A stretch of DNA of 32,123 nt from a virus, in the IMG/VR virus record IMGVR_UViG_3300009421_000151, positions 1 through 32,123 of that record; one strand, written 5' to 3'. Positions within the stretch are counted from its first letter, which is position 1. Every line of letters begins with the position of its first letter. This document shows, piece after piece, positions 409 to 19,357 of the stretch. The position numbers and the translations under genes were made by a program. The notes beneath the pieces were generated by a model. The model made no database searches. It was not told where the DNA came from and worked only from the letters and a program-made list of their open reading frames with translations.

Positions 409-421
409 CTGCACCCTCGCC
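409..421 (-). promoter_or_regulatory. Dispersed late-operon motif, copy 1
   Basis: Minus strand GGCGAGGGTGCAG, in the gap between the head-tail gene (stop at 427) and the truncated gene (start 375). The similarity extends on both sides: CGATAGCAAG upstream is shared with copy 5, and CATCG downstream is shared with copy 4. It lies 33 nt before the start codon. Function unknown. Confidence 0.75.
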
Positions 422-426
422 GCTTG

Positions 427-918
427 CTATCGATTCAGTGTGTCAACGCGTGACTGGTTGTCATAGACGCCGCCCACGGTGAACGGGTACGCAAGCGGCG
501 GTTTGCTCATGTCAAACTTGGCATTCTTGCCGCCGTACTGCAGCTCGCCGTATTGCACACCGTATCCCCACGCCAGCTCAATTGCGTATCGACCCAGCCA
601 GTACAGTTTCAACTGCGTGAACCCCGTGCCATCAGGCTCGATATCCTTGACCTCGTACACATGGCCATGAGTCATCAGGCGCTGGTTTTGTTTGATGTGG
701 ACAGCATCTTCATCAACCACCAGAAATACCGGGTTGAAACCTGAGGTGTCCAACGTCTCTAAATAAGATCGATCGAAAAATCCCGTAACCTCTCGCTCGA
801 GTATCACCTCGAACGTGGCATCGGGCAGAACCGTATTCGATGTTGTATTGCCCAGCACAGCGGTACTGCCATCGTCAGCAAAGTACGCGCGCCGTTCTGC
901 CAGTGATTCAAGTGCCAT
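427..918 (-). CDS. Putative head-tail joining/completion protein
   Basis: A protein of about 163 residues beginning MALESLAERRAYFADD. It sits after the capsid and DUF2190 genes, where lambda-like phages carry head-tail connector or stopper proteins. Size and sequence style (a beta-rich body ending in tyrosine/glycine-rich stretches) fit such a protein, but I see no diagnostic motif. I chose ATG 918 over the in-frame ATG 942 because 942 lies inside the T-tract of a strong terminator and would start in the hairpin tail. A GGGG stretch sits upstream of 918. Unlike other block-leading genes, this one has a terminator rather than the dispersed motif before it. Confidence 0.7.
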   Translation of the reverse strand: MALESLAERRAYFADDGSTAVLGNTTSNTVLPDATFEVILEREVTGFFDRSYLETLDTSGFNPVFLVVDEDAVHIKQNQRLMTHGHVYEVKDIEPDGTGFTQLKLYWLGRYAIELAWGYGVQYGELQYGGKNAKFDMSKPPLAYPFTVGGVYDNQSRVDTLNR

Positions 919-933
919 GGATTCGCTACCCCA

Positions 934-966
934 TAAAAACAAAAGGCCCGGTATTACCCAGGCCTT
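934..966 (-). terminator. Rho-independent terminator after the capsid block
   Basis: On the minus strand a 9-bp stem (AAGGCCTGG paired with CCGGGCCTT, one G-U pair) closes a 6-nt loop and is followed by TTGTTTTT. It lies between the DUF2190 gene and the head-tail gene in the direction of late transcription. It would lower expression of downstream genes relative to the capsid unless transcription is antiterminated. Confidence 0.85.
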
Positions 967-990
967 CTGTACAGCTTAGTGACCGTAATA

Positions 991-1314
991 TCAGCTGGAT
1001 GCTGGCAAGCCGTTCAGCAGTACGTCGATGCTGTCAGCGTTGACAACTTCATCGACAAAGCCGATGGCAACGCCACCACCTTCAACCACCTGCGTGGCCA
1101 GCGTCATGGTGACAGCGTCTCCTTGCGCAAGGCCATGAGCCGGTGCACTGATACGGTAGACGCCTGCCAGCTTGATCACGCCCATCTCATTGGCTGCGAT
1201 GTCAGCAATGGCGATACCTGCCATGGCACCGGATGCGACCACCTCACCGCTGGTTACAGCGGCTGTGGGCGTGATGTTGCGGGTCTGCCCGCTATGTCTG
1301 TAGCTCTTCGCCAT
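991..1314 (-). CDS. DUF2190 family capsid-associated protein
   Basis: A 107-residue protein starting MAKSYRHSGQTRNITPTAAVTSGEVV. The N-terminal pattern (a short polar start, then a PAAVTSG-type stretch and a small glycine-rich beta domain) is that of DUF2190, a family encoded next to phage major capsid genes and thought to act as capsid decoration or completion protein. The start at 1314 lies 5 nt after the capsid stop; longer in-frame starts would overlap the capsid gene. It is translated with the capsid and precedes the terminator at 934-966. Confidence 0.8.
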   Translation of the reverse strand: MAKSYRHSGQTRNITPTAAVTSGEVVASGAMAGIAIADIAANEMGVIKLAGVYRISAPAHGLAQGDAVTMTLATQVVEGGGVAIGFVDEVVNADSIDVLLNGLPASS

Positions 1315-1319
1315 CCGAT

Positions 1320-3437: not shown

Positions 3438-4890
3438 CGTCAGGAGTCTGTGAATTCGGATCGGGTTGATCCTGCACCCTCGCCGGATGGTGTTCTTCTT
3501 CATCCTTGATCTCACCCCACACCGTTTCAGGGTCTCGGCCACGTTCTGACATGACGTGCTGACGTGATTCCAGGCGCGCATCAACCAGCGTTGTCCAGGC
3601 GCTTGCCTCTTTGGATGGATCGATCCATGGCATCGCAGGCAGTGGAATGTCGTGATGTAGCACCGTGCTCAGATCAACGTCAGCCGGAGGCACCCACGCA
3701 CCCGACGCTATAGCGGCCTCGATAAATGCACGGTAATCAGGTGTGATCATGTGATCAGCAAAGTACCGGGAACAGGCGCCATACCCGATCTGCTTGTCAG
3801 TACGCTCCTGACGCATCGCAGAGTAGCTGCCCTCGTAGTTGTTGGACAGCGAGGAGAACGCGACCTTCATGCCGGCAGCTGCCCGTCTGTGCTGGTCCTT
3901 CATGTACTCGACCATGTGATTGTTCGGGCGGTTGCTTTGTATGGTGCCAATGCTCTCGCCTTCCTCGAGTTCGTATATCTGCCCCGGGTTCATCGATAGT
4001 TCACGTGGCTGTCGCTTCTCCGGAACCGTGTACATGTCCGGACTACCACGCTGCACATATCCGGTCATTGCAGCAGCGACTCTCATCGCAACGTTTTCCG
4101 ACTCCTCGCCATCCTTGATCGAATCAAAGCGGTCAAGCGTAGGCGCAAGCACGGACACACCGCGCGTCTGCCGAAATCGGGTGACGTGTTTGAGGTGTGT
4201 AACGCGTGTGGCAGGGATCCGCTTGTCTGGCTCAACTGCTCCAGCACGCGCAACCGCTGCCATGGCTTCGCCGATGTAGCTACGATGACACCAGTAGTTA
4301 GTCGCTCGGCCCCATTCGTTTTTCTGAACCGATGACACGATCCGCCGCTTCTCATCTGTGAACCCAACCGGAAACAAATCAGGCTCGATCATCTCGATAG
4401 AAAACGGTACTTGCGTCAGGTGATCCAGTGAGGGCACGAAACCGATCAGACGCTGAGAGAACATCTCACCATCACGCGCCCAGGCACGAGCCGTGAGTCG
4501 CTGCACTTCCTGATAGGTATGCTCGCCTGTAACCTCTGGTTTTAACATCCAGTCCTTGAACAGCGCTGCAATCTGTACGTTTGATTCTTTGTGCAGCTTG
4601 CCATCGAGACTACGCACCAATGCACGCGGTATCAGGCCACGGCCTATGATCGCGTTAACGAACACATCCAGACCACCGGAAACCAGATCGTAATTCTGCT
4701 CCAGGTACCGGGCCTCGGCACGCAGGCTCTCGATAGCGCCACGGGTTGCAGAGTCGGCAGTCTCGGATACCCCGCGGCGCTTGTGATACGGCGACGGCCT
4801 TGCTGCTTCGTAGTAGCCCTTGACAGGATCACCCGCCAGCTTGCGCCCGATCAGCTTGCGGGCACGGTACAGGCTTCGCTTCAGGTTCAT
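3418..4890 (-). CDS. Phage portal protein (lambda gpB type)
   Basis: A 490-residue protein starting MNLKRSLYRARKLIGRKLAGDPVKGYYEAA. The layout matches the lambda-type portal family: a basic N-terminus, LRAEARYLEQNYDLVSGGLDVFVNAIIGRGL, then IEMIEPDLFP and the YSAMRQER-type region near residues 375-390. Portal dodecamers form the DNA entry vertex and bind terminase. The start overlaps the stop of the gpW-like gene (ATGA). The C-terminus is Pro/Asp/Gln-rich, and the dispersed motif (copy 2) is read in frame there as Ala-Arg-Val-Gln-Asp. Confidence 0.92.
   Translation of the reverse strand: MNLKRSLYRARKLIGRKLAGDPVKGYYEAARPSPYHKRRGVSETADSATRGAIESLRAEARYLEQNYDLVSGGLDVFVNAIIGRGLIPRALVRSLDGKLHKESNVQIAALFKDWMLKPEVTGEHTYQEVQRLTARAWARDGEMFSQRLIGFVPSLDHLTQVPFSIEMIEPDLFPVGFTDEKRRIVSSVQKNEWGRATNYWCHRSYIGEAMAAVARAGAVEPDKRIPATRVTHLKHVTRFRQTRGVSVLAPTLDRFDSIKDGEESENVAMRVAAAMTGYVQRGSPDMYTVPEKRQPRELSMNPGQIYELEEGESIGTIQSNRPNNHMVEYMKDQHRRAAAGMKVAFSSLSNNYEGSYSAMRQERTDKQIGYGACSRYFADHMITPDYRAFIEAAIASGAWVPPADVDLSTVLHHDIPLPAMPWIDPSKEASAWTTLVDARLESRQHVMSERGRDPETVWGEIKDEEEHHPARVQDQPDPNSQTPDDAQNNR
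3472..3484 (-). promoter_or_regulatory. Dispersed late-operon motif, copy 2 (in portal 3' end)
   Basis: Exact GGCGAGGGTGCAG on the minus strand, followed by GATCAA. It lies inside the last 70 bp of the portal gene and 34 nt upstream of the protease-capsid start. It is translated in the portal frame as ARVQD. Its position relative to the next start, not the coding frame, is what it shares with the non-coding copies. Confidence 0.75.
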
Positions 4891-5189: not shown

Positions 5190-7063
5190 TTACCAGGCCT
5201 TGAATCCTGCACCCTCGCCGTTGCACGATTCACCCACTCTGACTGTGCGCCGGCTGGTTGCTCTGGCATCACCTGCGCTGCACGTCTCACGCTCGACGTA
5301 TCCGGAGGCTTGGATATAACGATCAGTGCATACAGGTAGACACGTAGATCCCAGGTCTCGTTACGGGCTCGCGATTTGATCCACGTGCGTTTGGCAAACC
5401 CTTTGGACAGAATTGTTTCAAGCCGCTCAGCGCATAGCTGCTCGAACACCTCCTCGTCGTATCCGGCAACCACGCCGCCCTGTGCATCCTTTGGCCACGA
5501 GCAATACCCGAAGTTATCCGAGTCAGTCTCGGCCAGGTAGGTTGCCGCATCCGACTTGAAGTCATCGACACGCAGGTTGTACACATCAACCTTTCGTTTA
5601 CTGCCGTCGTCCAGCTTTGTCCGCTCCCGGGCGACCTGTTTGCGTGCTGCCTGCCCCATGCCAGCGAACGCATACACGCGCTGGTTCCGGCGCTTGTAAC
5701 ACCACTCCTTAACGATGCGCTGACGGTGACCCTGTATATCGATGGCGGTTGCAAAGATGCCGAGCTCGTCACCTGTCTCGGTTGGCCACGTGCGACGTCT
5801 CAGATCGTCTAGCTGATCCCACACATCAACCTGTTCGGTATTGCCGAAGAACTGCCCCTTCTGAATGCCCCAACTACGCAACCGGTCATCGATGCCGATC
5901 ACCTCCCAGTCAAGGTAACTGTCCTGTGTGTCTACCAGCAGCATCAAGTGGAACACTTCGCCCGGCACGGCAAAGCCTGTCTCATGCCAGGGGTAGACCT
6001 TGCGCCGCCTGAATAGCGCCTCCCATTCAAGCTGCTCACCTTCGCCCTTCCACTCCTCGGCAAATGCGGTGTTGACCACCACCTGCAGCTCGCCCGGATC
6101 ACCTTGAGCTGCCAGCCACTCCATAGCGGTATCGCGCCATTCAGCGAACGGTGACGACCACTGGTTCATGTGGTAGCCCTTACGCTTCGGGTCGGCCTCG
6201 TTCATCACGACCCATGACCCGGCACCTTTAATCTTGCGCTCGGACTTCTCATCGTGAACGGTACCGCAGTGCTCACACGTGTAGTCCAGACTCTTCAGAA
6301 TCTTGTTCTCATCACGGTGAAACGTAAAATGCTTTAGCTGTGGGAACTGACTCTCGCCACACTCCGAGCACTCCAGCTGCCACTCGTGCTGTAACGTGGA
6401 CTTGTACTGCCTGGAGACGCCGACACCCTCCAACGTCGGCGTTGACACGATCAATATCTTCCTATTCCAGAACGTTCGTGTGCGCTTGATCGCCAGTAGT
6501 AGCGGGTCACCTTCCTTGTTCTTTTCCCACCGGTTGATCTCGTCAGCCAGCACGTAACGAATAGGACGTGATGCCAGCGACGATGGCGAATTCGCGCCAG
6601 CGATCGTCAGATGGCCACCGGTGAACGCCTTGTGCAGAATGGTGTTTTTCGATGTGCGCCCCACCGCTGAGCTGAAGCGATCCTTGAGCACAGGTGTGTC
6701 GCGAATCATCGGCGCGATACGATCCTTCGAGAAGGCCTCGGCCATCGGCTTCTCGTTCGGCTGCAGGCACAGTATCGGGCCCGGATCCTGATCAGCGATG
6801 TAGCCGATGAAGTTGTTGATGACCTCGGTCTTCGCGCTCTGAGCGCTGAACTTGAGCACCACCACTTCTGTGTCGTCAGACGGTGATAGCGCATCCATGG
6901 GCGCTACGGTGTGGGGTGCCCGGCTATTGCGCCATTGACCGGGTTCGGCAGAGGACTCGGCCGATAGCTTCCGGTGCTTGTTCGCCCAGGCACTTACCTG
7001 TAGGCGCGGCGGTGCACGGAAGGCTGCGAAGGCCGTCGCGATCGATTGCTCGAGCGGGATCAC
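5168..7063 (-). CDS. Terminase large subunit (GpA family)
   Basis: A 631-residue packaging motor and nuclease. Residues 72-81 (FSAQSAKTEV) are the deviant Walker A of GpA-type terminases; YVLADEI at 170-176 is Walker B with acidic D174/E175; ILIVSTPT is the coupling motif. Two CxxC pairs (CSEC and CEHC, around residues 232-268) suggest a zinc site. LMLLVDTQDSYLDW starts the nuclease domain. GpA enzymes usually cut at cos, which supports a cos phage. The start is GTG, sharing its G with the TerS stop (TAGTG). The last 25 residues contain motif copy 3 in frame (ARVQD). Confidence 0.95.
   Translation of the reverse strand: MIPLEQSIATAFAAFRAPPRLQVSAWANKHRKLSAESSAEPGQWRNSRAPHTVAPMDALSPSDDTEVVVLKFSAQSAKTEVINNFIGYIADQDPGPILCLQPNEKPMAEAFSKDRIAPMIRDTPVLKDRFSSAVGRTSKNTILHKAFTGGHLTIAGANSPSSLASRPIRYVLADEINRWEKNKEGDPLLLAIKRTRTFWNRKILIVSTPTLEGVGVSRQYKSTLQHEWQLECSECGESQFPQLKHFTFHRDENKILKSLDYTCEHCGTVHDEKSERKIKGAGSWVVMNEADPKRKGYHMNQWSSPFAEWRDTAMEWLAAQGDPGELQVVVNTAFAEEWKGEGEQLEWEALFRRRKVYPWHETGFAVPGEVFHLMLLVDTQDSYLDWEVIGIDDRLRSWGIQKGQFFGNTEQVDVWDQLDDLRRRTWPTETGDELGIFATAIDIQGHRQRIVKEWCYKRRNQRVYAFAGMGQAARKQVARERTKLDDGSKRKVDVYNLRVDDFKSDAATYLAETDSDNFGYCSWPKDAQGGVVAGYDEEVFEQLCAERLETILSKGFAKRTWIKSRARNETWDLRVYLYALIVISKPPDTSSVRRAAQVMPEQPAGAQSEWVNRATARVQDSRPGNWMGRRR
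5207..5219 (-). promoter_or_regulatory. Dispersed late-operon motif, copy 3 (in TerL 3' end)
   Basis: Exact GGCGAGGGTGCAG on the minus strand followed by GATTCA, within the last 52 bp of the terminase gene and 17 nt upstream of the gpW-like start. It is read in the terminase frame as ARVQD, the same frame as copy 2 in the portal gene. Confidence 0.75.
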
Positions 7064-7593: not shown

Positions 7594-7775
7594 AGGCGCT
7601 CCGAATAGTCTGGCTACAGATGCGATGTAGCCTGCATCCTCGCCAATGGAATCGGAGTGGCGATAGATGCCAGCCGAAACCTAGACACTTTTCGCGCAGC
7701 CCTATACCCGACAAGGGGCACCCCGCCAGAAGGACCCGCAGACGGTATGACTGGTCAGTCAGCTACTCATTAACG
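7594..7775. other. Non-coding gap upstream of terminase; probable cos region
   Basis: About 180 bp without a convincing gene, directly upstream of the small terminase gene, where lambda-like genomes place cos. The most cos-like spot is the two-fold symmetric GGGGCACCCC at 7715-7724 in a GC-rich stretch. No second site is obvious, and I cannot show cleavage. The gap also holds motif copy 7. No clear promoter or terminator was seen. Confidence 0.4.
7632..7644 (-). promoter_or_regulatory. Dispersed late-operon motif, copy 7 (one mismatch)
   Basis: Minus strand GGCGAGGATGCAG, one base different from the other copies, 38 nt upstream of the small terminase GTG start and in the same orientation as the rest. 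It is the only copy with a GGA core (AGGATG). Confidence 0.6.
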
Positions 7776-8471
7776 TCAGGTATTCGCACTGGCTTCAAAC
7801 TGAACATCAGCAAATCTTCCCTCGGCCACTGTGTTCGTATTGTCAAAGTACGTATCCGAGTGCTTAAGTCTGATATACAGCGTTTTGTCAGCGCTAGTCT
7901 GGTGCTCAAACACGAATTTATCTGTGTTGCCAATAATGCCAGAATCTACTATTTCATTAGCTAACGTCAGATCATCAGTCGGCTGCACACTGGCGCTCAC
8001 GTCTACAGCATATTGCCGGATATCAGCATTCGCGCCGTGTATCCACGTCAGTATAAAATTAATGCCTTGCTGTTCTACGCTCACGTTTAGCGACTTCGAT
8101 ACTTCTTGCGGAGTGCCTGTTTGCTTGTAAAACACTTTCCGGATTTCGACATAGGGTTCATCGAACCTGCTTAACGTTATCTCTGTGTATCCATTGTCTA
8201 GTGTTTGTAAAAATGATTGATCATATGTTACTGACAATGAGCCTGAAGAGTCTGTTGTTACCGATTGCTGGTCGTATACTTCATCAAAGAAATTGTTATT
8301 ACGATCTTGTAGTACGGCAACATCAATGCTTGTTAGCGGAGGCAATCCGTATGCGTAGATAGTCAAGCCATCTGATATATTTCTGTTATTTATCTCTTTG
8401 GTTGAGATGGAAACATACTGGCCAATCTTGCAAGTCGGCAGGTTGCTGCTATTGGAGCTAATCGTTGCCAT
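7776..8471 (-). CDS. Putative tail fibre accessory protein with FN3-like C-terminus
   Basis: A 231-residue beta-rich protein. The C-terminal part (GINFILTWIHGANADIRQYAVDVS to the DKTLYIRLKH strand) has the alternating pattern of a fibronectin-III or Ig-like domain. The N-terminal half is Ser/Thr/Asn-rich. It is the last gene of the AT-richer fibre block and ends just before the cos-like gap. Domain type is inferred from strand pattern only; adhesion or fibre assembly is inferred from neighbours. Confidence 0.6.
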   Translation of the reverse strand: MATISSNSSNLPTCKIGQYVSISTKEINNRNISDGLTIYAYGLPPLTSIDVAVLQDRNNNFFDEVYDQQSVTTDSSGSLSVTYDQSFLQTLDNGYTEITLSRFDEPYVEIRKVFYKQTGTPQEVSKSLNVSVEQQGINFILTWIHGANADIRQYAVDVSASVQPTDDLTLANEIVDSGIIGNTDKFVFEHQTSADKTLYIRLKHSDTYFDNTNTVAEGRFADVQFEASANT

Positions 8472-8473
8472 TC

Positions 8474-8794
8474 TTAGACGACAGCCGGAAACACAAACAA
8501 TTTGTCTGGCCGATGCAGCTCTTTTAGCATTGCCATTGCTTCTGCGTTTTCGTTTGGCTCACCCGGAGCGTAGAAATTGATGATTTTATAAGCTGGGTCT
8601 TGTTCGTAGCCCTCTACAGGGTCAACGTTTGCAGGTAGTTTTTTTGAAAATTCTAGCTCATCGGGCATAATGCCGTCACGAAGATTCTCCATGATTGACA
8701 GTATTTGTACGCACTGCTCCTGTGTATATAAGCCTTCTAATATCCAGTGCTCAATACACCCAATACCGTTTATGTACGCTTGTCGCGTGCTCAT
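8474..8794 (-). CDS. Small hypothetical protein of the fibre block
   Basis: A 106-residue acidic protein (MSTRQAYINGIGCIEHWILEGLYTQEQC). I see no signal peptide, membrane segment or known motif. ATG overlaps the stop of the 680-residue gene upstream (ATGA), so the two are translationally coupled. Position between two fibre-like genes suggests a chaperone or small structural part, but nothing in the sequence proves this. Confidence 0.6.
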   Translation of the reverse strand: MSTRQAYINGIGCIEHWILEGLYTQEQCVQILSIMENLRDGIMPDELEFSKKLPANVDPVEGYEQDPAYKIINFYAPGEPNENAEAMAMLKELHRPDKLFVFPAVV

Positions 8795-10833
8795 GCTCTT
8801 CTCGCTGGTTCGCCGGACCGAACAAACTGCATTCCTATGTAGTAATCATCAGCCGGAAATGTTCTGGACGTTGGGTAATCCCCCCAAGAACTGCCATTAT
8901 TTGAACTAAACTCAGCTTGAGAAGTATCAGGTGAAAAAACGCTAGACTCTGGCGGCGAGACTTCATTCCAGTGGACAGGATGAGCTGCAATTCGCCATGC
9001 TCCATTTAATGAATTGCAAGAAAGAATAGCTTCATAATTGCCACCGTCGAAATTATGACTAGATGACAGTGAGCTTAGCAAGTAATCAGCTTTGTATTTG
9101 TTGTCATTTCCGCTGCGATTGCGATTATCAGACGCTACGTTGTAGTTTGGTGACCATTGAGCGGTAGCTACAGTAGTGCCATTTTTCTTAATTGTTCCAA
9201 TAAGCGGATCGCCGTTCGGAGTATTCGATTTATGCCAGCGCGACGATACCCACCATCTATCTGCATTAAAAGCAAATCCAGACGGTACAGTGAATTTCAT
9301 TCTTGCAATATTACTGCCGCCAATGTCACGCCAGCTATCTTTGTAGTCATAGCCCCAAAATCCGTAACCAGTCCATGTGTTGTCATCGGTGTTGTTGTAC
9401 CGATACCACGGTATCTGCGGCTTGCCGGGCTGCCTAAGCCAGCCGCCGTTAGGTCCAGACATATAGCAGGTGTACGCTCCCCAGTCTCCGTAAGCAGGGC
9501 TTCTGTGTGGTCCTGTAAGATTACTTGTATTACCAAGTGAGCTGCCATTGTTTCCCCAGTAACCGCCCGTGTTGCCAGCGTTAACCCATGATCTACACAG
9601 ATCTGGCTTATTACGAAATGGACGGTCATCAACAAGGTCGTGTTTATTCATAAACGCTATAGCGTATCTATTACCCTCCGATATATTTATTGTCCTGTCT
9701 AAATTAATTATCTTAGGAGCATCGGGAAAGTCGTAAGGTACATAATCAGTTGAGCCATACGCCAACACAACACTTGTATTTGGCAACCCTTGGCTATCTA
9801 GTGGACAAATCACCACTTCAAAGACTGGGTTGCCCCAGCAGTAAGTCTGTCCCGAGTCAAACAGCATCGAGCATTGTTGGCCAGTCAATCTAGGGCTTGC
9901 GTTGTATCCAATAGCGTAAGTTGATGAGTAACTAGAGTTCGGCGCTCCACGTGTATTAACATCACCATCTGTTAGGGTTCTATTTTGAACACGCACCTTT
10001 GTTGTAGTGGCGCTTTGAGTAGCTACAAAACAAATCGCAGTGTTGTACTGATTGCTACTATTAAGTAGTTGTATTTCACGGCCACAGTTCCAACCAAACA
10101 AGCCGTAGCCTAAGTTAGAATCAGAGAGTTTAATGGCCGGAGCTGGGTCAGTAGTGTAAGTACGCACTCCACCAAACCCATACCATCCTGTTGTCTCTGG
10201 AGCAGTTTCAAACTCGTAAGAGTAGTGTGTGTTTGGCTTTGGCAGGTACATCGTTTGTCGATGCGCTTTGGGGTTTCCATACAGACCCGTTGTGTCTTCA
10301 TTCGTTCTCCAGGCAACAGATGGGTCAGATGTTTCCCAGAATTTTATACGAAATGATCTGTTAGAGTCTAAAAGAGCCTCAACTGTCAGTGAGTCGTGGT
10401 CTCCATTCTCTGTAGTCGATAAGACAGATGCAGAACCTTCTTGCTCTACAACTTTTGGAACTTCAACCCTAACGATCCAACCTACATTATTAATGGTTTC
10501 TTCATCAAGGTTTGCAGGATCTGTATATACACCATCACCCATAATTAGCAGAGAATTGCCACGTATACGGTATAAGGTAATAAGGTTATCACCCTCTGCC
10601 AGAGTTACATTCTCAGACCATTGCCCGTACTCCGCAGGCACTGCACTACCCTGATCAACACCATTAACAAAAAGATCAACTAAGTCTCCAGCTTGGAAAT
10701 CTGGCTCCCCCGTCCACTTTGGTAGCCACGATATTGATTCGAGAGGCTCTTTAGGCGTTATTAACCGACGCCGAACTAAAGCTGCTGTCGGCTGTGGTAC
10801 AAGCGACGGCACGCTGTAAGTCGCCATTACCAT
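8791..10833 (-). CDS. Large putative tail fibre/host-recognition protein
   Basis: A 680-residue protein rich in Gly, Asn, Ser, Tyr and Trp, with long beta-prone stretches and repeated aromatic patches such as WYGFGGVRTYTTD and YGFWGYDYKDSW. No signal peptide and no catalytic motif is visible. Composition and its place in a fibre block point to an extracellular, carbohydrate- or receptor-binding virion protein. The start ATG 10833 overlaps the upstream stop (TAATG); a second ATG two codons later is equally possible. The DNA is visibly AT-richer than the head genes, as is common for exchanged receptor-binding modules. Confidence 0.65.
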   Translation of the reverse strand: MVMATYSVPSLVPQPTAALVRRRLITPKEPLESISWLPKWTGEPDFQAGDLVDLFVNGVDQGSAVPAEYGQWSENVTLAEGDNLITLYRIRGNSLLIMGDGVYTDPANLDEETINNVGWIVRVEVPKVVEQEGSASVLSTTENGDHDSLTVEALLDSNRSFRIKFWETSDPSVAWRTNEDTTGLYGNPKAHRQTMYLPKPNTHYSYEFETAPETTGWYGFGGVRTYTTDPAPAIKLSDSNLGYGLFGWNCGREIQLLNSSNQYNTAICFVATQSATTTKVRVQNRTLTDGDVNTRGAPNSSYSSTYAIGYNASPRLTGQQCSMLFDSGQTYCWGNPVFEVVICPLDSQGLPNTSVVLAYGSTDYVPYDFPDAPKIINLDRTINISEGNRYAIAFMNKHDLVDDRPFRNKPDLCRSWVNAGNTGGYWGNNGSSLGNTSNLTGPHRSPAYGDWGAYTCYMSGPNGGWLRQPGKPQIPWYRYNNTDDNTWTGYGFWGYDYKDSWRDIGGSNIARMKFTVPSGFAFNADRWWVSSRWHKSNTPNGDPLIGTIKKNGTTVATAQWSPNYNVASDNRNRSGNDNKYKADYLLSSLSSSHNFDGGNYEAILSCNSLNGAWRIAAHPVHWNEVSPPESSVFSPDTSQAEFSSNNGSSWGDYPTSRTFPADDYYIGMQFVRSGEPARRA

Positions 10834-11816
10834 TAGACTAAATCCTCCAGTTTCATCCAGCCAGCAACGATGTCACCAACAACGTCGCCAGCAGGCTCTA
10901 CTTGCAGTTGGGCTAATGTGATGCCGTTAGTTGCCATGTACTGACATCTTGCTAGCCGTACTATAGGCTCATACCCGGCAACAGTTGTCCACTCTAAAAA
11001 AAACGGAGCTAGATCGGGGTCATACGGGTACTTTGTGTTGTCCCCTAACCCACCAAGAGTCCACCATTCATGTCCGTTTGTGTCAAAAGGTTTACGCACG
11101 TAATCATTATTAGCGTCAAACAACATTGCGTTGGTTATGCTGTCTTTAGCTTCAAACGGGTATTTAGTGTGCGCCCCGACAGATCCAGAAGATTGCGTTG
11201 TTGTGCGTCTGATTTCTTGCTTTATAGATTTAGACTCTGCTTCTGCGATGGCGACTCTTGAATCAATAGCTGTAACCGAATCAGGCACTACACTTTGTCT
11301 TGGAAGGACTTCACTCCACGTAGACGCCCCATCACTTGTGTACAAACCAAATAAGTCAGTGAACAGTATTCGAGCAAAATTGTCACCGCCGTACAGCGTC
11401 GCATCTAGCGCAGTGATTTCAGCGGGTATGACACTCTCTGCTGGAGCGGCTCTTGGAGTGCTCAAGGGTATATACTTTACATTGGCTTCGCTTGACCCAA
11501 ACGCTTTTGACTCTTGAGCCAATAGTCTTGTATTCAAAGCTTCGTAATCATTTGCTATGGTGTTAACAGACGCCACGATAGACGGTGAAACAGCAGTTAT
11601 GATTGTGCTTGATGAACTACTGGACGATCCTACTGGGCGAGTTAATAGATTAGCTACGCTGCCTATTTCGTTGTAGCCATAGATTTCAAAAGCTCTGGTG
11701 CCATAGTCGATTGTTCGACCATCAGCAATCCAATCGCTAAGAGCATAAGTGCCGATGTCATACTGAGCTTTTGCAGCCGCTTCAGCTTGTGATCTTGATG
11801 TGTACGGAATTGGCAT
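10833..11816 (-). CDS. Putative tail fibre/structural protein with poly-Ser linker
   Basis: A 327-residue protein. A globular N-terminus (SRSQAEAAAKAQYDIGTYALSDWIADG) is followed by a run of seven Ser near residues 64-70, a helical stretch (VNTIANDYEALNTRLLAQES) resembling a trimeric coiled segment, and a further Ala/Glu-rich helix (VAIAEAESKSIKQEI). This alternation of head domain, flexible linker and helices is common in fibres. No family recognised. A 52-nt gap separates it from the tailspike gene. Confidence 0.6.
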   Translation of the reverse strand: MPIPYTSRSQAEAAAKAQYDIGTYALSDWIADGRTIDYGTRAFEIYGYNEIGSVANLLTRPVGSSSSSSSTIITAVSPSIVASVNTIANDYEALNTRLLAQESKAFGSSEANVKYIPLSTPRAAPAESVIPAEITALDATLYGGDNFARILFTDLFGLYTSDGASTWSEVLPRQSVVPDSVTAIDSRVAIAEAESKSIKQEIRRTTTQSSGSVGAHTKYPFEAKDSITNAMLFDANNDYVRKPFDTNGHEWWTLGGLGDNTKYPYDPDLAPFFLEWTTVAGYEPIVRLARCQYMATNGITLAQLQVEPAGDVVGDIVAGWMKLEDLV

Positions 11817-11868
11817 TTACGTTTAACTCTTGAGTGATACTGTGACGGCGTTGAGTTGAGTTTGTCAT

Positions 11869-14262
11869 TTATATTATTCTTGTTCCGAGAAGAAATATTT
11901 CCCATAAGTCATCATTCTTGTTGGCAATTACCTCAACAACTTGTCCATCTGTGATTTGCGCAAGTTCTGTTGCCCCACGCTTTACTGATAAATAATGAGT
12001 ATTATTTACAGCACTCACAGAAAACTGAAATTTTCTACCATCTTGCATAGATGAAGCTAATGGCAGTCCCAGCGTACTCGTTGCAGTTAAATCAAGGTCA
12101 AATCTTCCAGTATAGGCGGGCAAACCCGCCGCCCCAGCATGCCAGTTAACAGTTCCCGCTCCTTTTATTAACTTCGGAACCTTGCCGTAGGACGATGACT
12201 GCTGCTGCACGACAGAACCTTTTGTCTCATTTGCCGAATAAAGCTCACTGTTGTATGTTTGCATTTTATCAACATGAGAAGAACTAATATTTATATTTTT
12301 AAGCTCTGGCATATCGAGAGCATTTGTTGGATTTATTAGATACAGAGGGCCAGCGGGCAAGTTTGCGTAATTTGTAGCGCCTACATTTAAGTTGGATACT
12401 GTGCCCAGCATGTTGACACCACTTGCCAAAGTAGTCTTTAAAAATTCTTGCCAAGGGTTGATTAATTTCACCCCGTCTATGTTGTATACATTAACTCCTA
12501 AAAGCTCTATGCAAGGTAAATAAGTGTTTGCTTCTGTCGTCGAGCCACCATGTATATAACAATTTGGCCCAATGTGTAGTTGTGAAGATGAGTTTGTCAT
12601 ATATAGACAACGACCTTTATTAACTTCCCAATGAGAGTTAATAAAGGATAGCGAAAGGTTCCCCGCTATAATTATTGAATCGCCAACACTGTTTTGAAAA
12701 GCGCAACTGTTAAACGCATACGTTACGGCTAATGTGTCAGTTGACAAATCTCTCACATTGTTGTAAAGACCATGCAATGACGTATTGCTAAAATTTACAC
12801 GACCGCCTCCAGACTGGTTGTTTCCGATAAATAAGCCACAACTAGAGCCTTCAGATATTGGAGCTGTTTGCGTAACTCCACTTGCTGTAAACACTTTTAC
12901 ATTATCAAGAATTGTATTCCATGTATTTCGTGCTTTAATGCCAGATCCTTGCGCATTTCCTACTGAGATTTGCACGTTTCTAATGACTAGCTCGGGCAAA
13001 GACGGACAATCAATAGCAAACCCAGTTCCATCATTTCTTACAGTAAAATCATAAAAGTGTACGTCTCTTTCATTTAATCCTGTGCCATTTGGAGATGTTT
13101 TGAATAACCCATCTGGTGATGCCGTTTGAAATATCGTGCCGACAATTTCCAGCCCATCTATTCTTTTTAGTCCTTTTACATCTACGGCCCCACTGCCTTT
13201 GATAGATATAACCCCACCACGAGTTGCGGAGTGGCCGGGGTTATCAACGGCATCGTAATACACACGCACAGGCCCACTTTCATAAATACCTACACCACAA
13301 TGAAGTGTTCTATGTTCTGTGTGACTGAGGTAATTCACAGCAGCTTGCAAGGCGATTGTGTTATCTACCCCAAGTCCAGGCTTTGCACCAAAGTATCTAG
13401 CTCTAAACGGCCCATCTGTATTCCTAACAAACCCTCCAGTTGATCCACTAGTACCTGAGAATGGAACGTAATACCCACCTTCAGAATCTAACAGCACATC
13501 AGAAGATATGTCAGTTGTGACAACATTGAATACCCCATTTCGAGGAAAATCATGCACTATGATTTGTGTAGCGCCCGACGACTCAAGTAAAGTCATCTCG
13601 TCATATGCAAGAGTTTCTGGACGTTTGTAAAGAGCACCTAAAAGCCCAACAACTCGTTCCTGTGCAATATTCCCCGACCCATCAGGGTTACGCTGCCACG
13701 ATGTCGGCCCAGTACGAGTATGCGTTGCTACAACAAACGTATCACCAGATGTTTGATCAGTTTCCAGCTCTACAAATCGTTTTTTCCAAGGACGTACTTC
13801 AGTCGCTAAATCATCTGCTGATCCGTAAGCTGTGTCGTTATAATCGTTTTGGGGATCACGTTTCCAGTACGTTAAATCTACAGCACTATTTGATCCTATT
13901 GGCGCAACAGCTATCGCACGATAACTTTCACCGGTAGACAGGTTGATTGTGTCATTGAATTTGGCAACCGGCGTATTCTCATTCGCAAGATCAATCTCGC
14001 CCACCCATGTGCCTGCGCGAACCTCCCGCACCCACACATCACCATAAGCACCAGCAACCCTATCCGGATCAATCGACGGATCTGGATTGGTTAGCGTAAG
14101 AGAGAGCTGGCATCGATGACCATTGAGACTCGTGCACCAACTACCAGGCACAAAGAACGCAGGATCAGCAGAGCCACGCTCAGTGGTCCACATTGGTGCA
14201 TCGATGTCGCGCATATCCGCATAATCAATATGCGACTTGCCTAGCCTGCCATGGTTCTCCAT
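11869..14262 (-). CDS. Tailspike with pectate-lyase-type beta-helix
   Basis: A 797-residue protein. Near residue 290, FRARYFGAKPGLGVDNTIALQAAVNYL matches the start signature of pectate-lyase-superfamily beta-helices (FGAxxDGxxDNTxAxQxA). It is followed by hundreds of residues of short repeated strands (VIRNVQISVGNAQGSGIKA, VNFSNTSLHGLYNN) as in right-handed parallel beta-helix tailspikes. Such proteins are trimeric and often bind or cleave surface polysaccharide. The first 280 residues would be the virion-attachment part. The catalytic residues cannot be placed from sequence alone. AT-rich DNA and Asn/Ser-rich coding suggest separate acquisition of this gene. Confidence 0.8.
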   Translation of the reverse strand: MENHGRLGKSHIDYADMRDIDAPMWTTERGSADPAFFVPGSWCTSLNGHRCQLSLTLTNPDPSIDPDRVAGAYGDVWVREVRAGTWVGEIDLANENTPVAKFNDTINLSTGESYRAIAVAPIGSNSAVDLTYWKRDPQNDYNDTAYGSADDLATEVRPWKKRFVELETDQTSGDTFVVATHTRTGPTSWQRNPDGSGNIAQERVVGLLGALYKRPETLAYDEMTLLESSGATQIIVHDFPRNGVFNVVTTDISSDVLLDSEGGYYVPFSGTSGSTGGFVRNTDGPFRARYFGAKPGLGVDNTIALQAAVNYLSHTEHRTLHCGVGIYESGPVRVYYDAVDNPGHSATRGGVISIKGSGAVDVKGLKRIDGLEIVGTIFQTASPDGLFKTSPNGTGLNERDVHFYDFTVRNDGTGFAIDCPSLPELVIRNVQISVGNAQGSGIKARNTWNTILDNVKVFTASGVTQTAPISEGSSCGLFIGNNQSGGGRVNFSNTSLHGLYNNVRDLSTDTLAVTYAFNSCAFQNSVGDSIIIAGNLSLSFINSHWEVNKGRCLYMTNSSSQLHIGPNCYIHGGSTTEANTYLPCIELLGVNVYNIDGVKLINPWQEFLKTTLASGVNMLGTVSNLNVGATNYANLPAGPLYLINPTNALDMPELKNINISSSHVDKMQTYNSELYSANETKGSVVQQQSSSYGKVPKLIKGAGTVNWHAGAAGLPAYTGRFDLDLTATSTLGLPLASSMQDGRKFQFSVSAVNNTHYLSVKRGATELAQITDGQVVEVIANKNDDLWEIFLLGTRII

Positions 14263-14266
14263 GAGC

Positions 14267-14920
14267 TTACAGCGCTACTTTGCCAGTGATAACCAACTCG
14301 AATTGCGTGTTGTCTGCAGGGGGTGTGGCAAATGGACCGACAGTGATCACTGTCGCAGATGCCTTGACCACCTTGAGTCCTATCTGTTCCTCTGAGCTAC
14401 GTTTCTGCACGTGCTTAGTTGCTACAGAGCTCATGGTGTGGTCGATATTGAACGACGTAAGTATCCCGTCACCAGGCAAGGGAAAAACAAACGTCATCAG
14501 GCGGTTTTCCAGCGCGTTACTGATCGCCTGGTTGCTCACCGCGTTAGTGCTCGCTTTGCTCAGCGCTGTGTCGACAGCAGCCGGCGCAACATTAGTGGCT
14601 GTGTCCTTCCAGGCTCGAGGGTTGGCATCCGCATCAACCACCCACACGGTGTCAGTGCTCTCAACGTTCGCGTAGGCATCATCCTGAGCAGTGGCTGCAG
14701 GGTACGCAGACTCAAGCGCTGCAGGGGTGGCATGCTCGCCCTTGTACTTGTTCAGCTCCGCCACCAGCGCCTTGTCGGCATCAGAGTAGCGGTTAGTATT
14801 GGTTAGCCCGTAAAGGGCTGTTGCGAGCGTGGCAGCGTCAGTCCTTGCCAACAACTCTGACAGGACAACAAGACGCAGCGGATCGCCGTCAAGAGCCGCA
14901 TGGCTAGTGGTTGCACTCAT
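14267..14920 (-). CDS. Putative tail fibre protein, C-terminal domain shared with next gene
   Basis: A 217-residue protein. Residues about 100-140 carry AVDTALSKASTNAVSNQAISNALENR, a helical repeat seen in many phage fibre proteins. The last 70 residues (GDGILTSFNIDH to VITVGPFATPPADNTQFELVITG) resemble the C-terminal domain of the upstream neighbour, suggesting duplication. The gene overlaps that neighbour (ATGA) and is 4 nt from the tailspike gene, so it probably forms the stalk or adaptor of the same fibre assembly. Confidence 0.65.
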   Translation of the reverse strand: MSATTSHAALDGDPLRLVVLSELLARTDAATLATALYGLTNTNRYSDADKALVAELNKYKGEHATPAALESAYPAATAQDDAYANVESTDTVWVVDADANPRAWKDTATNVAPAAVDTALSKASTNAVSNQAISNALENRLMTFVFPLPGDGILTSFNIDHTMSSVATKHVQKRSSEEQIGLKVVKASATVITVGPFATPPADNTQFELVITGKVAL

Positions 14921-15444
14921 GAGGATCCCTCAACAATTAGTTTGTAACGATTAGTGGATGGTGTTGTGGCAAACGGGCCGACAATCACCTGACCGGGTGT
15001 AGTGAGCCAGTCAGTGGGTATGGCAATAGGCTTGTTACTGGCCATGTCGATCACAACAACGTTGCTGACATGGGCCTTCGGATGGGCGAGTGTGAATGTC
15101 TTCAGTGCACCGTTACCGAATGAACGCTCGTAGGCGCGCGAACCGCCGAACTGGATCCAATAGGGATTACGGACAGGACTTGAAGCACCTAGCTGTTCGG
15201 GAGTAGCTTCAGGATCGGCGTAGTAGTTGACTGGAACACCACCGCCATCAGGAAACCAACAGCGCAAGCCGACGTAGTCCTGCTCCCATAATGGATTGGT
15301 TACGCCCTGGAGCTTGTTGTGCTGGCCAACGATGTCATTGACTTCGCCGGGTAGCAGCTCGTAACGTTCCTCACCCACTGCGGGAGGTGCCTGCAGTGGG
15401 TGGTATTCCTGCAGCTCAATGTCAAGTTCGTAGGGGTTGGCCAT
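14917..15444 (-). CDS. Putative virion protein leading the fibre block
   Basis: A 175-residue protein (MANPYELDIELQEYHPLQAPP). The C-terminal 70 residues (GNGALKTFTLAHPKAHVSNVVV to IVGPFATTPSTNRYKLIVEG) are similar to the end of the following gene. It is the first gene of the fibre block and has motif copy 4 ending 11 nt upstream of the ATG, with no other ribosome-binding site visible. A structural role in the tail tip or fibre is inferred from its neighbours. Confidence 0.6.
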   Translation of the reverse strand: MANPYELDIELQEYHPLQAPPAVGEERYELLPGEVNDIVGQHNKLQGVTNPLWEQDYVGLRCWFPDGGGVPVNYYADPEATPEQLGASSPVRNPYWIQFGGSRAYERSFGNGALKTFTLAHPKAHVSNVVVIDMASNKPIAIPTDWLTTPGQVIVGPFATTPSTNRYKLIVEGSS

Positions 15445-15455
15445 AAAGGCCGATG

Positions 15456-15468
15456 CTGCACCCTCGCC
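15456..15468 (-). promoter_or_regulatory. Dispersed late-operon motif, copy 4
   Basis: Exact GGCGAGGGTGCAG on the minus strand in the short gap between the DUF1353 gene and the first fibre gene, 11 nt before the ATG at 15444. The flanks match copy 1 closely (AAGC before, CATCGGC after). No other Shine-Dalgarno is present, so the GAGG of the motif may serve, at a longer than usual spacing. Confidence 0.75.
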
Positions 15469-16403: not shown

Positions 16404-16406
16404 CGG

Positions 16407-16901: not shown

Positions 16902-16910
16902 GTGCTCTCG

Positions 16911-17675
16911 TTATGTGGGTAGTAGTACGTCGGGTGTGATGTAGGGATAGACATCCCGGTCAAGCTCTGTGTGGGCGCCATCACGTCGAACGCCCTCCCA
17001 GTCAATACCGTGGGTGCACGGGACACCTTCAAGACGAGCCGCTTCCTTGAGTGCATTCGTGGTCTGCTCGAATGCCTCCCAGCTCCAATCCTCGTGACCG
17101 TTGACGATCGGCACGTGATCGATCGCCTTGGCCAGTGGTCGCTCAAGGTGGCGCGTTTCCATCGTCCAGGAGACGCCCTTGCGGATGTTCTCGCGCTGGG
17201 TCTCAACCTCACGCAGGCTGTCGATCAGTGCAAAGTCGATCGGTGACAACTTCAGCCCGGTTCGATGCACTCGCGCTATAGCCGGGTCAGATTGCGCCAG
17301 GTGTTTCTCACTGGTGCGGCCGAATACAAACGCTTTTCGGGTGGGTGCTGCCGGTATTGATGGCCGGGGTCGTCGGTCAACCTCGGCGAATGAATCGAAT
17401 TCTGTGTCGAGTATCGAGGGCTCAGGACGTGGTGCAGGCTCGGCGGGTTTTTCTACCAGGACATTGGTGGCTATCTGTACACCGAAAAAACGCCCCAGCG
17501 CAACCAGTCCGGTCGATAGGTAGGCCAGAGTGCCGGTGATAAACAGGAACCAGTCCCAGTTCTCGAACGCGCCGATCTTTGCCATATATCCGCTGATAGC
17601 CAGCACACCGCCTGCCGCCCATTGCAAGGTACCAACATACAGCCGTGTCTTTGCACTCTTGATATCGGTATTCAT
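16911..17675 (-). CDS. Membrane-anchored M15 peptidase (holin-endolysin-like fusion)
   Basis: A 254-residue protein with two clear membrane segments (residues 12-31 and 43-65), a Pro/Glu-rich linker (76-113) and a C-terminal M15-type peptidoglycan peptidase (about 116-241). The peptidase pattern is visible: SPIDFALIDSLREVETQRENIRKG-type region, a zinc-ligand pair His176/Asp186 in ETRHL...AID, THGIDW, and DGAHTEL with the third ligand His235. In this family the enzyme cuts L-Ala-D-Glu bonds of the peptide stem. The paired hydrophobic hairpin resembles a small holin, so one polypeptide may combine holin and endolysin roles. The start at 17675 overlaps the upstream stop (ATGA). Confidence 0.78.
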   Translation of the reverse strand: MNTDIKSAKTRLYVGTLQWAAGGVLAISGYMAKIGAFENWDWFLFITGTLAYLSTGLVALGRFFGVQIATNVLVEKPAEPAPRPEPSILDTEFDSFAEVDRRPRPSIPAAPTRKAFVFGRTSEKHLAQSDPAIARVHRTGLKLSPIDFALIDSLREVETQRENIRKGVSWTMETRHLERPLAKAIDHVPIVNGHEDWSWEAFEQTTNALKEAARLEGVPCTHGIDWEGVRRDGAHTELDRDVYPYITPDVLLPT

Positions 17676-18229
17676 GATTGCTCGGCCTGTCTGTACGGAT
17701 CCAGACCGCCGAGACGCCGTAAATGATTCTCGGCCTGCAGCCAGATTTCTATCGAGCCTCGGATGGCTATGGTTGCGCGTGATCCCGTGGCTGTCGTCAG
17801 GTGGTAGTCCTGCATTGGACCCACCGCCTGCTGCTCCTTGATCGCAAGTATCGTGTTACGACGCTGGCCAAGGCCTCTATGCTTGCCGACTTTCCCGATG
17901 TTGCCATGCGTGTTGTAACAACGCCATCGACAGTACAGCCCTTCTGAATCCTTGGCACTGCGTGATGGGTAGAACCCCGTGTTGCAGCACTTGCACTGCT
18001 TCGGATTGTCGTGTCTTATCGCCTGGATAACGTACGACGATGGCTTGCCCGAGATGTTAGGCAGCTCATGACACTGAGCCCAGATACGTCGGTTCGAGTA
18101 CCCGTCTTTAACCCACGTTTCTATCTGCGCATGCTCAGAACTGCCTTGAACAATAGAGCCTTTGAAGCAAAGCGCTCTGACGGCCATGGCAACTGGATGT
18201 ACAGCAGTAAACTCTGGCGAGGGCATCAT
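17672..18229 (-). CDS. Zinc-ribbon-like hypothetical protein
   Basis: A 185-residue basic protein. KQCKCCNTGFYPS...LYCRWRCYNTHG forms a cysteine cluster likely to bind zinc, and a preceding region (YSNRRIWAQCHELPNISGKPSSYVIQAIRHDN) could be helix-turn-helix-like. A nucleic-acid-binding or late regulatory role is possible; I do not recognise the family. Two adjacent ATGs (18229, 18226) could start it. Neither has a normal ribosome-binding site; motif copy 5 ends 10 nt upstream. Confidence 0.65.
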   Translation of the reverse strand: MMPSPEFTAVHPVAMAVRALCFKGSIVQGSSEHAQIETWVKDGYSNRRIWAQCHELPNISGKPSSYVIQAIRHDNPKQCKCCNTGFYPSRSAKDSEGLYCRWRCYNTHGNIGKVGKHRGLGQRRNTILAIKEQQAVGPMQDYHLTTATGSRATIAIRGSIEIWLQAENHLRRLGGLDPYRQAEQS

Positions 18230-18239
18230 GCAATTAATG

Positions 18240-18252
18240 CTGCACCCTCGCC
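18240..18252 (-). promoter_or_regulatory. Dispersed late-operon motif, copy 5
   Basis: Exact GGCGAGGGTGCAG on the minus strand, between the stop at 18258 and the ATG at 18229 (10 nt away). With its flanks (CGATAGCAAG and then T before it, CAT after it) it matches copy 1 at all but one of about 27 positions. Confidence 0.78.
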
Positions 18253-18257
18253 ACTTG

Positions 18258-18824
18258 CTATCGAAACCAGAACAGTTGGGTGTGAGGTGCTGGCACGTCA
18301 CGAAACACTAGCGGCGATGGGTTGATGACAGGATTTGGCTCCAGCCAGCACATGGATTTGTATTGAGGGATTTGCCCATTCCACATCCAGATGCCGCTGC
18401 TACTGTCTTCAAGCAGCTCGCCATTCTCATCGTAAAACCCTGTCATACGAGGCTTAACTGGCTCGAATGACAGCTCCCACAGCCTCTCCTCTTCACTGGT
18501 CTGCAGTCTGAACGAGACAATCTCCCCGCGATCAGGGCCCTCGAGCATGTTGCAACGCATGACATCAGGCCATGCCGCGCGAACCGTCAGATGCCAGATT
18601 GAATGGCTTCTGAACTTTGGATGCGTGCCAACCGGGTAGTTCTCACGCGTAGGAACAACATCGAAGTATTCCACCCAATGAGAGGTATTGCGCGTGCTGT
18701 TAACCGTGTACTCGATAGCAAATCGTGCAGTGACGCCATAGGTAAAAAACAGCAGTGACCAGAACGACACCGACAGGAGAGCGTTGAGCACAATGCGTGC
18801 TCTTTGGAATAGCTGAACTTTCAC
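18258..18824 (-). CDS. Single-pass membrane protein of unknown function
   Basis: A 188-residue protein starting at GTG 18824, chosen because GTGA overlaps the upstream stop and an AAGGA lies 9 nt before it. The N-terminus has one hydrophobic segment (IVLNALLSVSFWSLLFFTYGVTA), and the remaining 150 residues are polar and rich in aromatics (WMWNGQIPQYKSMCW), so it is probably a signal-anchored periplasmic domain. Family not recognised. It is the last of a run of small membrane genes. Confidence 0.6.
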   Translation of the reverse strand: MKVQLFQRARIVLNALLSVSFWSLLFFTYGVTARFAIEYTVNSTRNTSHWVEYFDVVPTRENYPVGTHPKFRSHSIWHLTVRAAWPDVMRCNMLEGPDRGEIVSFRLQTSEEERLWELSFEPVKPRMTGFYDENGELLEDSSSGIWMWNGQIPQYKSMCWLEPNPVINPSPLVFRDVPAPHTQLFWFR

Positions 18825-19030
18825 GGTTTGAGGTCCTTCATCAGTGCAAGCATCACCTTGCCCAGACCCATCAATACTCCACACAAACCGAACACATACC
18901 AGGGTATCTCCTGATTGCGCTCTAGCAGGTAGTACATGCAGGCGACGAATGCTGCTGCTCCCAGGCAATGGTTAAGCGCCTTGAATATTTTCTCCGAGCT
19001 TGTGAGCTCTGGCTTTTCACTATCCGTCAT
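18821..19030 (-). CDS. Small two-segment membrane protein
   Basis: A 69-residue protein starting MTDSEKPELTSSEKIFKAL, with two hydrophobic stretches (CLGAAAFVACMYYLL and WYVFGLCGVLMGLGKVMLALM) and a Lys-ending tail. Size and topology resemble class II holins, but the same holds for many small phage membrane proteins. It overlaps both neighbours, so it is tightly coupled. An alternative GTG start lies six codons upstream at 19048. Confidence 0.6.
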   Translation of the reverse strand: MTDSEKPELTSSEKIFKALNHCLGAAAFVACMYYLLERNQEIPWYVFGLCGVLMGLGKVMLALMKDLKP

Positions 19031-19178
19031 GACCTCGGCCGATCTCACGGACTGCCTGTCCTGCCTTTACAACCACGAAGCACGCAACCGTGGCCACGAC
19101 GGCCCCTGAAACGGTATAGGTTGCAATCACCACCAATGATGTTGCGCAACACACGTCGAAGAGTTCTTCAGGCGTCAT
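19020..19178 (-). CDS. Very small membrane protein
   Basis: A 52-residue protein (MTPEELFDVCCATSLVVIATYTV) with one long hydrophobic segment (SLVVIATYTVSGAVVATVACFVVV) and a basic end. The start at 19178 gives the natural product; in-frame starts further upstream would run through the preceding small gene. It overlaps the next gene by 11 nt. Possible holin or antiholin part; not recognised. Confidence 0.5.
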   Translation of the reverse strand: MTPEELFDVCCATSLVVIATYTVSGAVVATVACFVVVKAGQAVREIGRGHDG

Positions 19179-19188
19179 CAAATGATAA

Positions 19189-19335
19189 TCAACTGATGAC
19201 GGCAGGACAGCCGCACTTGTCGGCCCATGTAATAAACGCTCCATAAACAAGAAACATGATCCATACGTTGCAGCCCTCGATGGCTGTGAAGTTGCAGTGC
19301 ATTGAAAACCGGAAAGCATCCTGCGCTCTGCTCAT
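19189..19335 (-). CDS. Very small Cys-containing membrane-like protein
   Basis: A 48-residue frame starting MSRAQDAFRFSMHC, with a hydrophobic stretch (VWIMFLVYGAFITW) and several Cys. It begins 9 nt after motif copy 6 and ends 10 nt before the next small membrane gene. It is supported by position and compact packing rather than by a known family. Confidence 0.45.
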   Translation of the reverse strand: MSRAQDAFRFSMHCNFTAIEGCNVWIMFLVYGAFITWADKCGCPAVIS

Positions 19336-19344
19336 GTATTGAGC

Positions 19345-19357
19345 GTGCACCCTCGCC
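19345..19357 (-). promoter_or_regulatory. Dispersed late-operon motif, copy 6
   Basis: Minus strand GGCGAGGGTGCAC (last base differs) in the gap between the stop at 19382 and ATG 19335, 9 nt before the start. The preceding flank (TGATAT) is unrelated to the other copies, so the conserved core is about 12 bases. Confidence 0.65.

What the first reader, a model, noticed from the sequence alone, without database searches (positions are those of the whole stretch)
409..19357. Seven copies of a directional 13-bp motif mark the starts of late gene blocks
GGCGAGGGTGCAG on the minus strand is found at 409-421, 3472-3484, 5207-5219, 15456-15468, 18240-18252, with one-mismatch copies at 7632-7644 and 19345-19357. 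Every copy has the orientation of late transcription. Each lies 33, 34, 17, 11, 10, 38 and 9 nt upstream of a start codon. These starts open blocks whose internal genes are joined by short overlaps: small membrane genes; zinc protein to DUF1353; fibres; terminase; gpW-portal; capsid-DUF2190; distal gene. Three of the downstream genes have no normal ribosome-binding site. Directional, start-linked repeats are known as start-associated sequences and stoperators in mycobacteriophages; this sequence is not one I know. It could be a translation enhancer, an RNA-binding or antitermination site, a repressor-bound stoperator or a processing site.
Basis: partly seen in the sequence, partly recalled or inferred. 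Interest (0 to 1): 0.82.

Follow-up and report, generated by a model that had tools for sequence, protein, structure and literature searches.

The report
Repeated RNA signal before late genes
A bacterial virus carries the same 12-16 letter sequence seven times, each copy just before a late gene and each followed at once by a small hairpin of different sequence, which looks like an unrecorded RNA control signal for its structural and lysis genes, though its function is untested.

Summary
GGCGAGGGTGCAG occurs five times exactly and twice with one mismatch, always on the minus (late) strand and never on the plus strand. No 12-mer exceeds three copies in shuffled sequence, against six here. Every copy lies 9-38 nt upstream of a plausible late start codon; the starts at copies 3 and 7 are uncertain.

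In all seven copies a short stem-loop begins at or just past the motif's 3' end, and the stems differ in sequence. The folding signal peaks sharply there (z about -6 against dinucleotide shuffles), is near zero upstream and 20 nt on, and is absent from the phage's other starts, cluster K SASs and phage tf nick sites. Box plus variable hairpin points to an RNA-level element (GGCGAGGRTGCASSMT).

No copy set was found in about 200 relatives (26-47% identity), IMG/VR or 369 genomes of one bacterial class. The phage is an orphan, so conservation could not be tested.

Best explanation: a cis-acting RNA control site at late cistron junctions, setting translation or mRNA fate of the downstream gene (confidence 0.45). 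Stoperator, promoter and nick readings are weaker. It resembles a start-associated sequence but is not a cluster K SAS.

The parts
409..421 (-). copy 1, exact box, 33 nt upstream of ATG 375 (distal ORF)
387..406 (-). hairpin of copy 1, TCGGCA/TGCCGA, loop 8
3472..3484 (-). copy 2, exact box, inside the portal gene end, 34 nt upstream of ATG 3437 (fused protease-capsid gene)
3458..3472 (-). hairpin of copy 2, GGATC/GATCC, loop 5
5207..5219 (-). copy 3, exact box, inside the large terminase gene end, 17 nt upstream of TTG 5189 or 35 nt upstream of TTG 5171 (gpW-like gene)
5194..5209 (-). hairpin of copy 3, CAGG/CCTG, loop 8 (weakest; a competing fold exists)
7632..7644 (-). copy 4, one mismatch (GGCGAGGATGCAG), 38 nt upstream of GTG 7593 (small terminase)
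7612..7632 (-). hairpin of copy 4, GGCTACA/TGTAGCC, loop 7 (strongest)
15456..15468 (-). copy 5, exact box, 11 nt upstream of ATG 15444 (first gene of the fibre block)
15439..15451 (-). hairpin of copy 5, GGCC/GGCC, loop 5, overlaps the start codon
18240..18252 (-). copy 6, exact box, 10 nt upstream of ATG 18229 (Cys-rich protein, then endolysin)
18216..18240 (-). hairpin of copy 6: inner GCATTA/TGATGC (18223-18240), or the whole box pairing with CCCTCGCC (18216-18223), enclosing the start codon
19345..19357 (-). copy 7, one mismatch (GGCGAGGGTGCAC), 9 nt upstream of ATG 19335 (start uncertain)
19330..19344 (-). hairpin of copy 7, GCTCA/TGAGC, loop 5, overlaps the candidate start codon

Best explanation
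Each copy is a cis-acting RNA element in the late polycistronic mRNA: a conserved linear box (GGCGAGGRUGCASSMU, containing a Shine-Dalgarno-like GAGG) followed at once by a stem-loop whose structure, not sequence, is kept. Most likely a trans-acting factor reads the box (a phage or host RNA-binding protein, an RNA, or the 30S subunit through GAGG) at the junction between cistrons, and sets translation initiation, or processing and stability, of the gene that opens each late block. Shown here: the box, its orientation, its start-linkage and the locked hairpin. Inferred: that it acts as RNA, that a factor binds it, and that the outcome is translation or mRNA fate.
For: Seven copies in the sense orientation of the late genes and none on the other strand. 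All within 9-38 nt upstream of a plausible start, a position held by about 3.6% of late-strand sites. A hairpin begins at or just past the 3' end of all seven copies: z about -6 against dinucleotide shuffles at offsets +10/+12, near zero at -60 to 0 and again at +20. Stems differ in sequence, which favours selection on structure. Seventeen starts without a copy show no such structure. Both coding copies use the rare Arg codon AGG (6% of Arg codons), which fits nucleotide-level constraint. GAGG in the box can pair with the anti-Shine-Dalgarno at about -6.4 kcal/mol.
Against: An inverted repeat in DNA looks the same whether it acts as RNA or DNA. The hairpin window was chosen after inspection, and only seven instances exist; the copy 3 stem is weak. 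Distance to the start varies from 9 to 38 nt, and the 7632 gene has its own GGAG ribosome-binding site. No candidate factor was identified. No relative carries the element, so covariation across genomes is untested.
Confidence: 0.45

Rival explanations
1. Transcription-elongation signal: a nut-, put-, ops- or pause-like element, read in the nascent RNA or non-template strand, that loads an antiterminator or paces RNA polymerase at late junctions.
For: Linear box plus hairpin is the layout of nut sites. From memory, the box GG-N6-TGC fits five of the six key positions of the elemental pause consensus (GG..TGYG), and such pauses are reported to be enriched at translation start sites (cited in PMC5234074). 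A strong intrinsic terminator lies within the late region at 939-970.
Against: The +1 G of the pause consensus is A here. The stems and loops have no shared sequence, unlike boxB of a given phage. One loading site per operon normally suffices. A box-type element would not need to sit near starts.
Confidence: 0.2
2. DNA-bound site: stoperators for the phage repressor, or activator sites or promoters for late genes.
For: Asymmetric 13-bp repeats in one orientation relative to transcription are typical of L5 stoperators (PMC5712189).
Against: No copy lies at the repressor/early-promoter region, where different inverted repeats lie instead. No sigma-70-like site coincides and upstream base composition is ordinary. 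A DNA-bound box does not explain a sequence-variable hairpin at its 3' edge.
Confidence: 0.17
3. Dispersed or selfish repeat, or a recombination linker copied between gene junctions, without a regulatory role.
For: Copies 1, 5 and 6 share extra flanking sequence that includes the upstream TAG stop, so some copying probably happened. The set is found in this genome only.
Against: Hairpins differ between copies yet all pair; copying alone would give the same stem or decayed ones. Strict orientation and start-linkage are not expected of a neutral repeat.
Confidence: 0.12
4. Recognition sites of a phage nickase that leave single-strand interruptions in virion DNA.
For: Near-exact repeats on one strand only, as for the 14 sites of phage tf (PMC3517423).
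Against: tf sites ignore gene starts and transcription direction (several inside genes, two opposing transcription) and have no hairpin (z = 0).
Confidence: 0.04

Closest known systems
Start-associated sequences (SAS/ESAS) of cluster K mycobacteriophages (PMC3203893, PMC12699233)
   Same: About 13 bp, asymmetric, one orientation, just upstream of starts, several copies per genome, function unknown; about half are paired with an inverted repeat.
   Different: Different sequence (GGGATAGGAGCCC). SASs lie mainly outside the structural genes, here they are in the late region. The ESAS inverted repeat is upstream with a conserved sequence, here the hairpin is downstream with variable sequence. Anaya SASs show no downstream hairpin.
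L5-type stoperators (PMC5712189)
   Same: 13-bp asymmetric repeats, one orientation relative to transcription, mostly intergenic.
   Different: Stoperators share the repressor operator sequence at Pleft; no copy lies at the repressor region here. Hairpins are not part of them.
Split ribosome-binding sites of T4 genes 25 and 38 (PMC3014915)
   Same: A hairpin between a Shine-Dalgarno sequence and a distant start codon; GAGG lies in the box here.
   Different: Single genes, not a repeated box. Effective spacing after removing the hairpin is not uniform here, and in copies 5-7 the hairpin overlaps the start codon.
nut sites of lambdoid phages (boxA plus boxB)
   Same: Linear box followed by a hairpin on the transcribed strand.
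   Different: Box is not boxA-like; stems and loops are unrelated in sequence; seven copies in the late region.
Localized nick sites of phage tf (PMC3517423)
   Same: Near-exact repeats on one strand only.
   Different: Not start-linked as a rule, no hairpin.

Membership tests
Start-associated sequences (cluster K SAS) | Consensus GGGATAGGAGCCC with at most two mismatches | tested here: not met
   Box is GGCGAGGRTGCAS; consensus from PMC3203893.
Start-associated sequences (cluster K SAS) | One orientation, immediately upstream of gene starts | tested here: met
   Seven of seven, 9-38 nt upstream.
Start-associated sequences (cluster K SAS) | ESAS: conserved 17-bp inverted repeat upstream of the SAS | tested here: not met
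   No structure upstream (z near 0 at -60 to -15); hairpin downstream with variable sequence.
Stoperators | Same sequence as the repressor operator at the early promoter | tested here: not met
   No copy in the repressor/early region 20-32 kb.
Stoperators | Bound by the phage repressor and dampening downstream expression | not testable with these tools
   Needs a binding and reporter assay.
nut sites | boxB hairpin of conserved sequence bound by an N-type protein | tested here: not met
   Seven different stems and loops.
nut sites | Antitermination activity | not testable with these tools
   Needs a terminator readthrough assay.
T4-type split ribosome-binding site | Hairpin brings a distant Shine-Dalgarno sequence to normal spacing | tested here: not met
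   Could fit copies 1-2 at most; the 7632 gene has its own GGAG, and copies 5-7 have the hairpin over the start.
Localized nick sites (tf type) | Repeated site on one strand only | tested here: met
   Seven on minus, none on plus.
Localized nick sites (tf type) | Nick present in virion DNA | not testable with these tools
   Needs virion DNA.
Known Rfam RNA families | Match at gathering score | tested here: not met
   No match.

The most novel reading that the evidence does not exclude
A post-transcriptional regulon inside one phage: a dedicated phage-encoded factor recognises box plus hairpin at each late block and sets the stoichiometry or timing of lysis, fibre, terminase, connector and capsid genes from one long transcript.
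Probability: 0.25. Interest if true: 0.75.

Novelty: new variant of a known kind. Interest (0 to 1): 0.52.

Why it matters
Late phage genes are usually thought to be tuned by promoters, antitermination and local ribosome-binding sites. A repeated box-plus-hairpin at most late junctions would be a common control handle on one long transcript. Seven natural copies with different stems make the structural requirement directly testable by compensatory mutation. It also suggests that start-associated repeats, described in 2011 and still without a tested function, may have RNA-level counterparts in other phage groups.

Tried and rejected
Rfam search at both thresholds gave nothing relevant. Sigma-70 promoter and terminator scans showed nothing at the copies. 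Long-range pairing of the box with downstream sequence is not general; it is driven by copy 6. Stop-codon readthrough was considered because copies 1, 5 and 6 follow TAG; the frame stays open into the next gene only in copies 1 and 5, so it was rejected as a general role. A split ribosome-binding site was rejected as a uniform explanation. Searches for close relatives by large terminase, portal and Cys-rich protein in IMG/VR found none. A capsid profile gave 160 loci at 26-47% identity without the motif set. The 16-base form in IMG/VR gave 19 single, chance-like hits; 369 genomes of the class around the Marinobacter relative gave one. The AlphaFold model of the Cys-rich protein after copy 6 is unusable (mean pLDDT 35.5). 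sigma-54, KOPS and Chi likeness were considered from memory and dropped because spacing or length does not fit.

Full report
WHAT WAS CHECKED. The 13-mer GGCGAGGGTGCAG is present exactly at 409-421, 3472-3484, 5207-5219, 15456-15468 and 18240-18252, and with one mismatch at 7632-7644 and 19345-19357, all on the minus strand. There is no plus-strand copy with up to one mismatch and no copy of the reversed pattern. With the two tandem arrays masked, the commonest 12-mer of the window has six copies; in 100 dinucleotide shuffles the maximum for any 12-mer was three, and two in 99 of them. Weaker copies with three mismatches occur on both strands at about the expected number, so copies are either near-perfect or absent.

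CONTEXT. The record is a 32,123-base virus contig with an integrase at its right end and a lambda-like late region read leftward: endolysin (phrog_465), DUF1353 protein, fibre genes of low G+C, small and large terminase, a short gpW-like gene, portal, a fused protease-major capsid protein, head decoration and head closure. The contig ends in a tandem repeat at its left end, so tail genes are missing. The copies begin after the replication and nuclease genes and run to the contig end; none lies in the early rightward operon. Copies 1, 5 and 6 follow the TAG stop of the upstream gene by 5-6 nt. Copies 2 and 3 lie inside the ends of the portal and terminase genes. Copy 4 is in the roughly 180-nt gap before the small terminase gene. 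Copy 7 follows a stop by 24 nt. Distances to the nearest plausible start are 33, 34, 17 (or 35), 38, 11, 10 and 9 nt. The starts after copies 3 and 7 are uncertain.

THE HAIRPIN. Reading the flanks showed a short inverted repeat starting at or just past the 3' end of every copy: TCGGCA/TGCCGA, GGATC/GATCC, CAGG/CCTG, GGCTACA/TGTAGCC, GGCC/GGCC, GCATTA/TGATGC and GCTCA/TGAGC. Against random late-strand positions the longest Watson-Crick stem averages 5.0 versus 3.25. Against dinucleotide shuffles of the same 25 nt the mean folding energy is -6.9 versus -3.0 kcal/mol, z about -6. A sliding test shows that this is confined to the motif's 3' edge: z is near zero at offsets -60 to 0, about -6 at +10 and +12, and back to zero at +20. 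Against all late-strand 25-mers the mean is reached in 0.03% of random sets of seven. The 17 starts without a copy show no such structure. The window was chosen after inspection, which inflates the exact figures, but the sharp position dependence is hard to get by chance. The stems all differ in sequence: copies 1 and 5 share CGGC on the 5' arm and differ at the next base with a matching change on the other arm. Conservation of the linear box continues to position 16 (GGCGAGGRTGCASSMT, T16 invariant). In copy 6 the whole box GGCGAGGG can also pair with CCCTCGCC in the coding start, enclosing the start codon (-24.2 kcal/mol).

WHAT IT IS NOT. No Rfam family matches. No sigma-70-like promoter coincides with a copy, and upstream base composition is ordinary. 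Mycobacteriophage SASs, fetched as a control (Anaya, eight sites in the first 50 kb), show no hairpin on the downstream side (z = +1) and differ in sequence and genome location (PMC3203893, PMC12699233). The 14 nick sites of phage tf, another class of one-strand repeats, show no hairpin (z = 0) and ignore gene starts and transcription direction. L5 stoperators share the repressor operator sequence (PMC5712189), whereas no copy lies near the repressor region here. A T4-type split ribosome-binding site (PMC3014915) could fit copies 1-2 at most.

RELATIVES. Nearest relatives are distant: large terminase about 40% and integrase about 35% at best in the phage collection, portal 41% in sampled genomes, capsid fusion 26-47%. 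About 200 loci were scanned; none has a repeated copy set and none has a 12-mer in six dispersed copies. The 16-base form occurs once each in 19 IMG/VR contigs, a chance-like pattern, and once in 369 genomes of one bacterial class. The tools may hide very near relatives of the window, so absence of close kin is not proof. Conservation at the same junctions, the strongest test, could not be made.

MECHANISM. Sense orientation, start-linkage, a fixed linear box and a hairpin kept in structure but not in sequence are together best explained by an RNA-level cis-element at late cistron junctions. I commit to control of translation initiation or mRNA fate of the downstream gene through a factor that reads the box, with the stem-loop as its structural partner (confidence 0.45). 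Shown: box, orientation, placement, locked hairpin. Inferred: action as RNA, a bound factor, the outcome. An elongation or antitermination signal is the main rival (0.2), then a DNA-bound site (0.17), a dispersed repeat (0.12) and nick sites (0.04).

VERDICT. A genuine, unexplained repeat with a newly found structural half. It resembles start-associated sequences in layout but fails their sequence and inverted-repeat tests, so it is filed as a new variant of a known kind. Interest is moderate, limited by a single orphan genome and the lack of functional data.

Noticed in passing
23725-23774 and 25985-26034: Pair of AT-rich inverted repeats built on TAGCAATGCTA-like palindromes on either side of the putative repressor region; likely repressor operators.
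   Followed up: no
28649-29110: Small early protein (phrog_17260, E 1e-57, unknown function) that is 52-57% identical to proteins of mycobacteriophages such as MooMoo and Yoshi and of a human faecal phage record, far closer than any structural gene: an unusual cross-host exchange.
   Followed up: partly
939-970: Strong intrinsic terminator (13 pairs, T tail) inside the late operon between the decoration and head-closure genes.
   Followed up: no
8000-14300: Fibre module of about 42-45% G+C in a genome of about 55%, placed upstream of the terminase genes; probably acquired.
   Followed up: no
27046-27765: Plus-strand gene with a long 15-bp tandem array that encodes pentapeptide repeats.
   Followed up: no
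1-160: The contig ends in a 12-bp tandem array coding for an Asp/Ser/Ala-rich repeat, which probably broke the assembly and hides the tail genes.
   Followed up: no
16911-17675: Endolysin gene with an N-terminal hydrophobic extension, possibly a fused holin-like or signal-anchor segment.
   Followed up: no
24544-25179: Plus-strand protein beside the repressor with a weak, sub-threshold BRCT-domain match.
   Followed up: no
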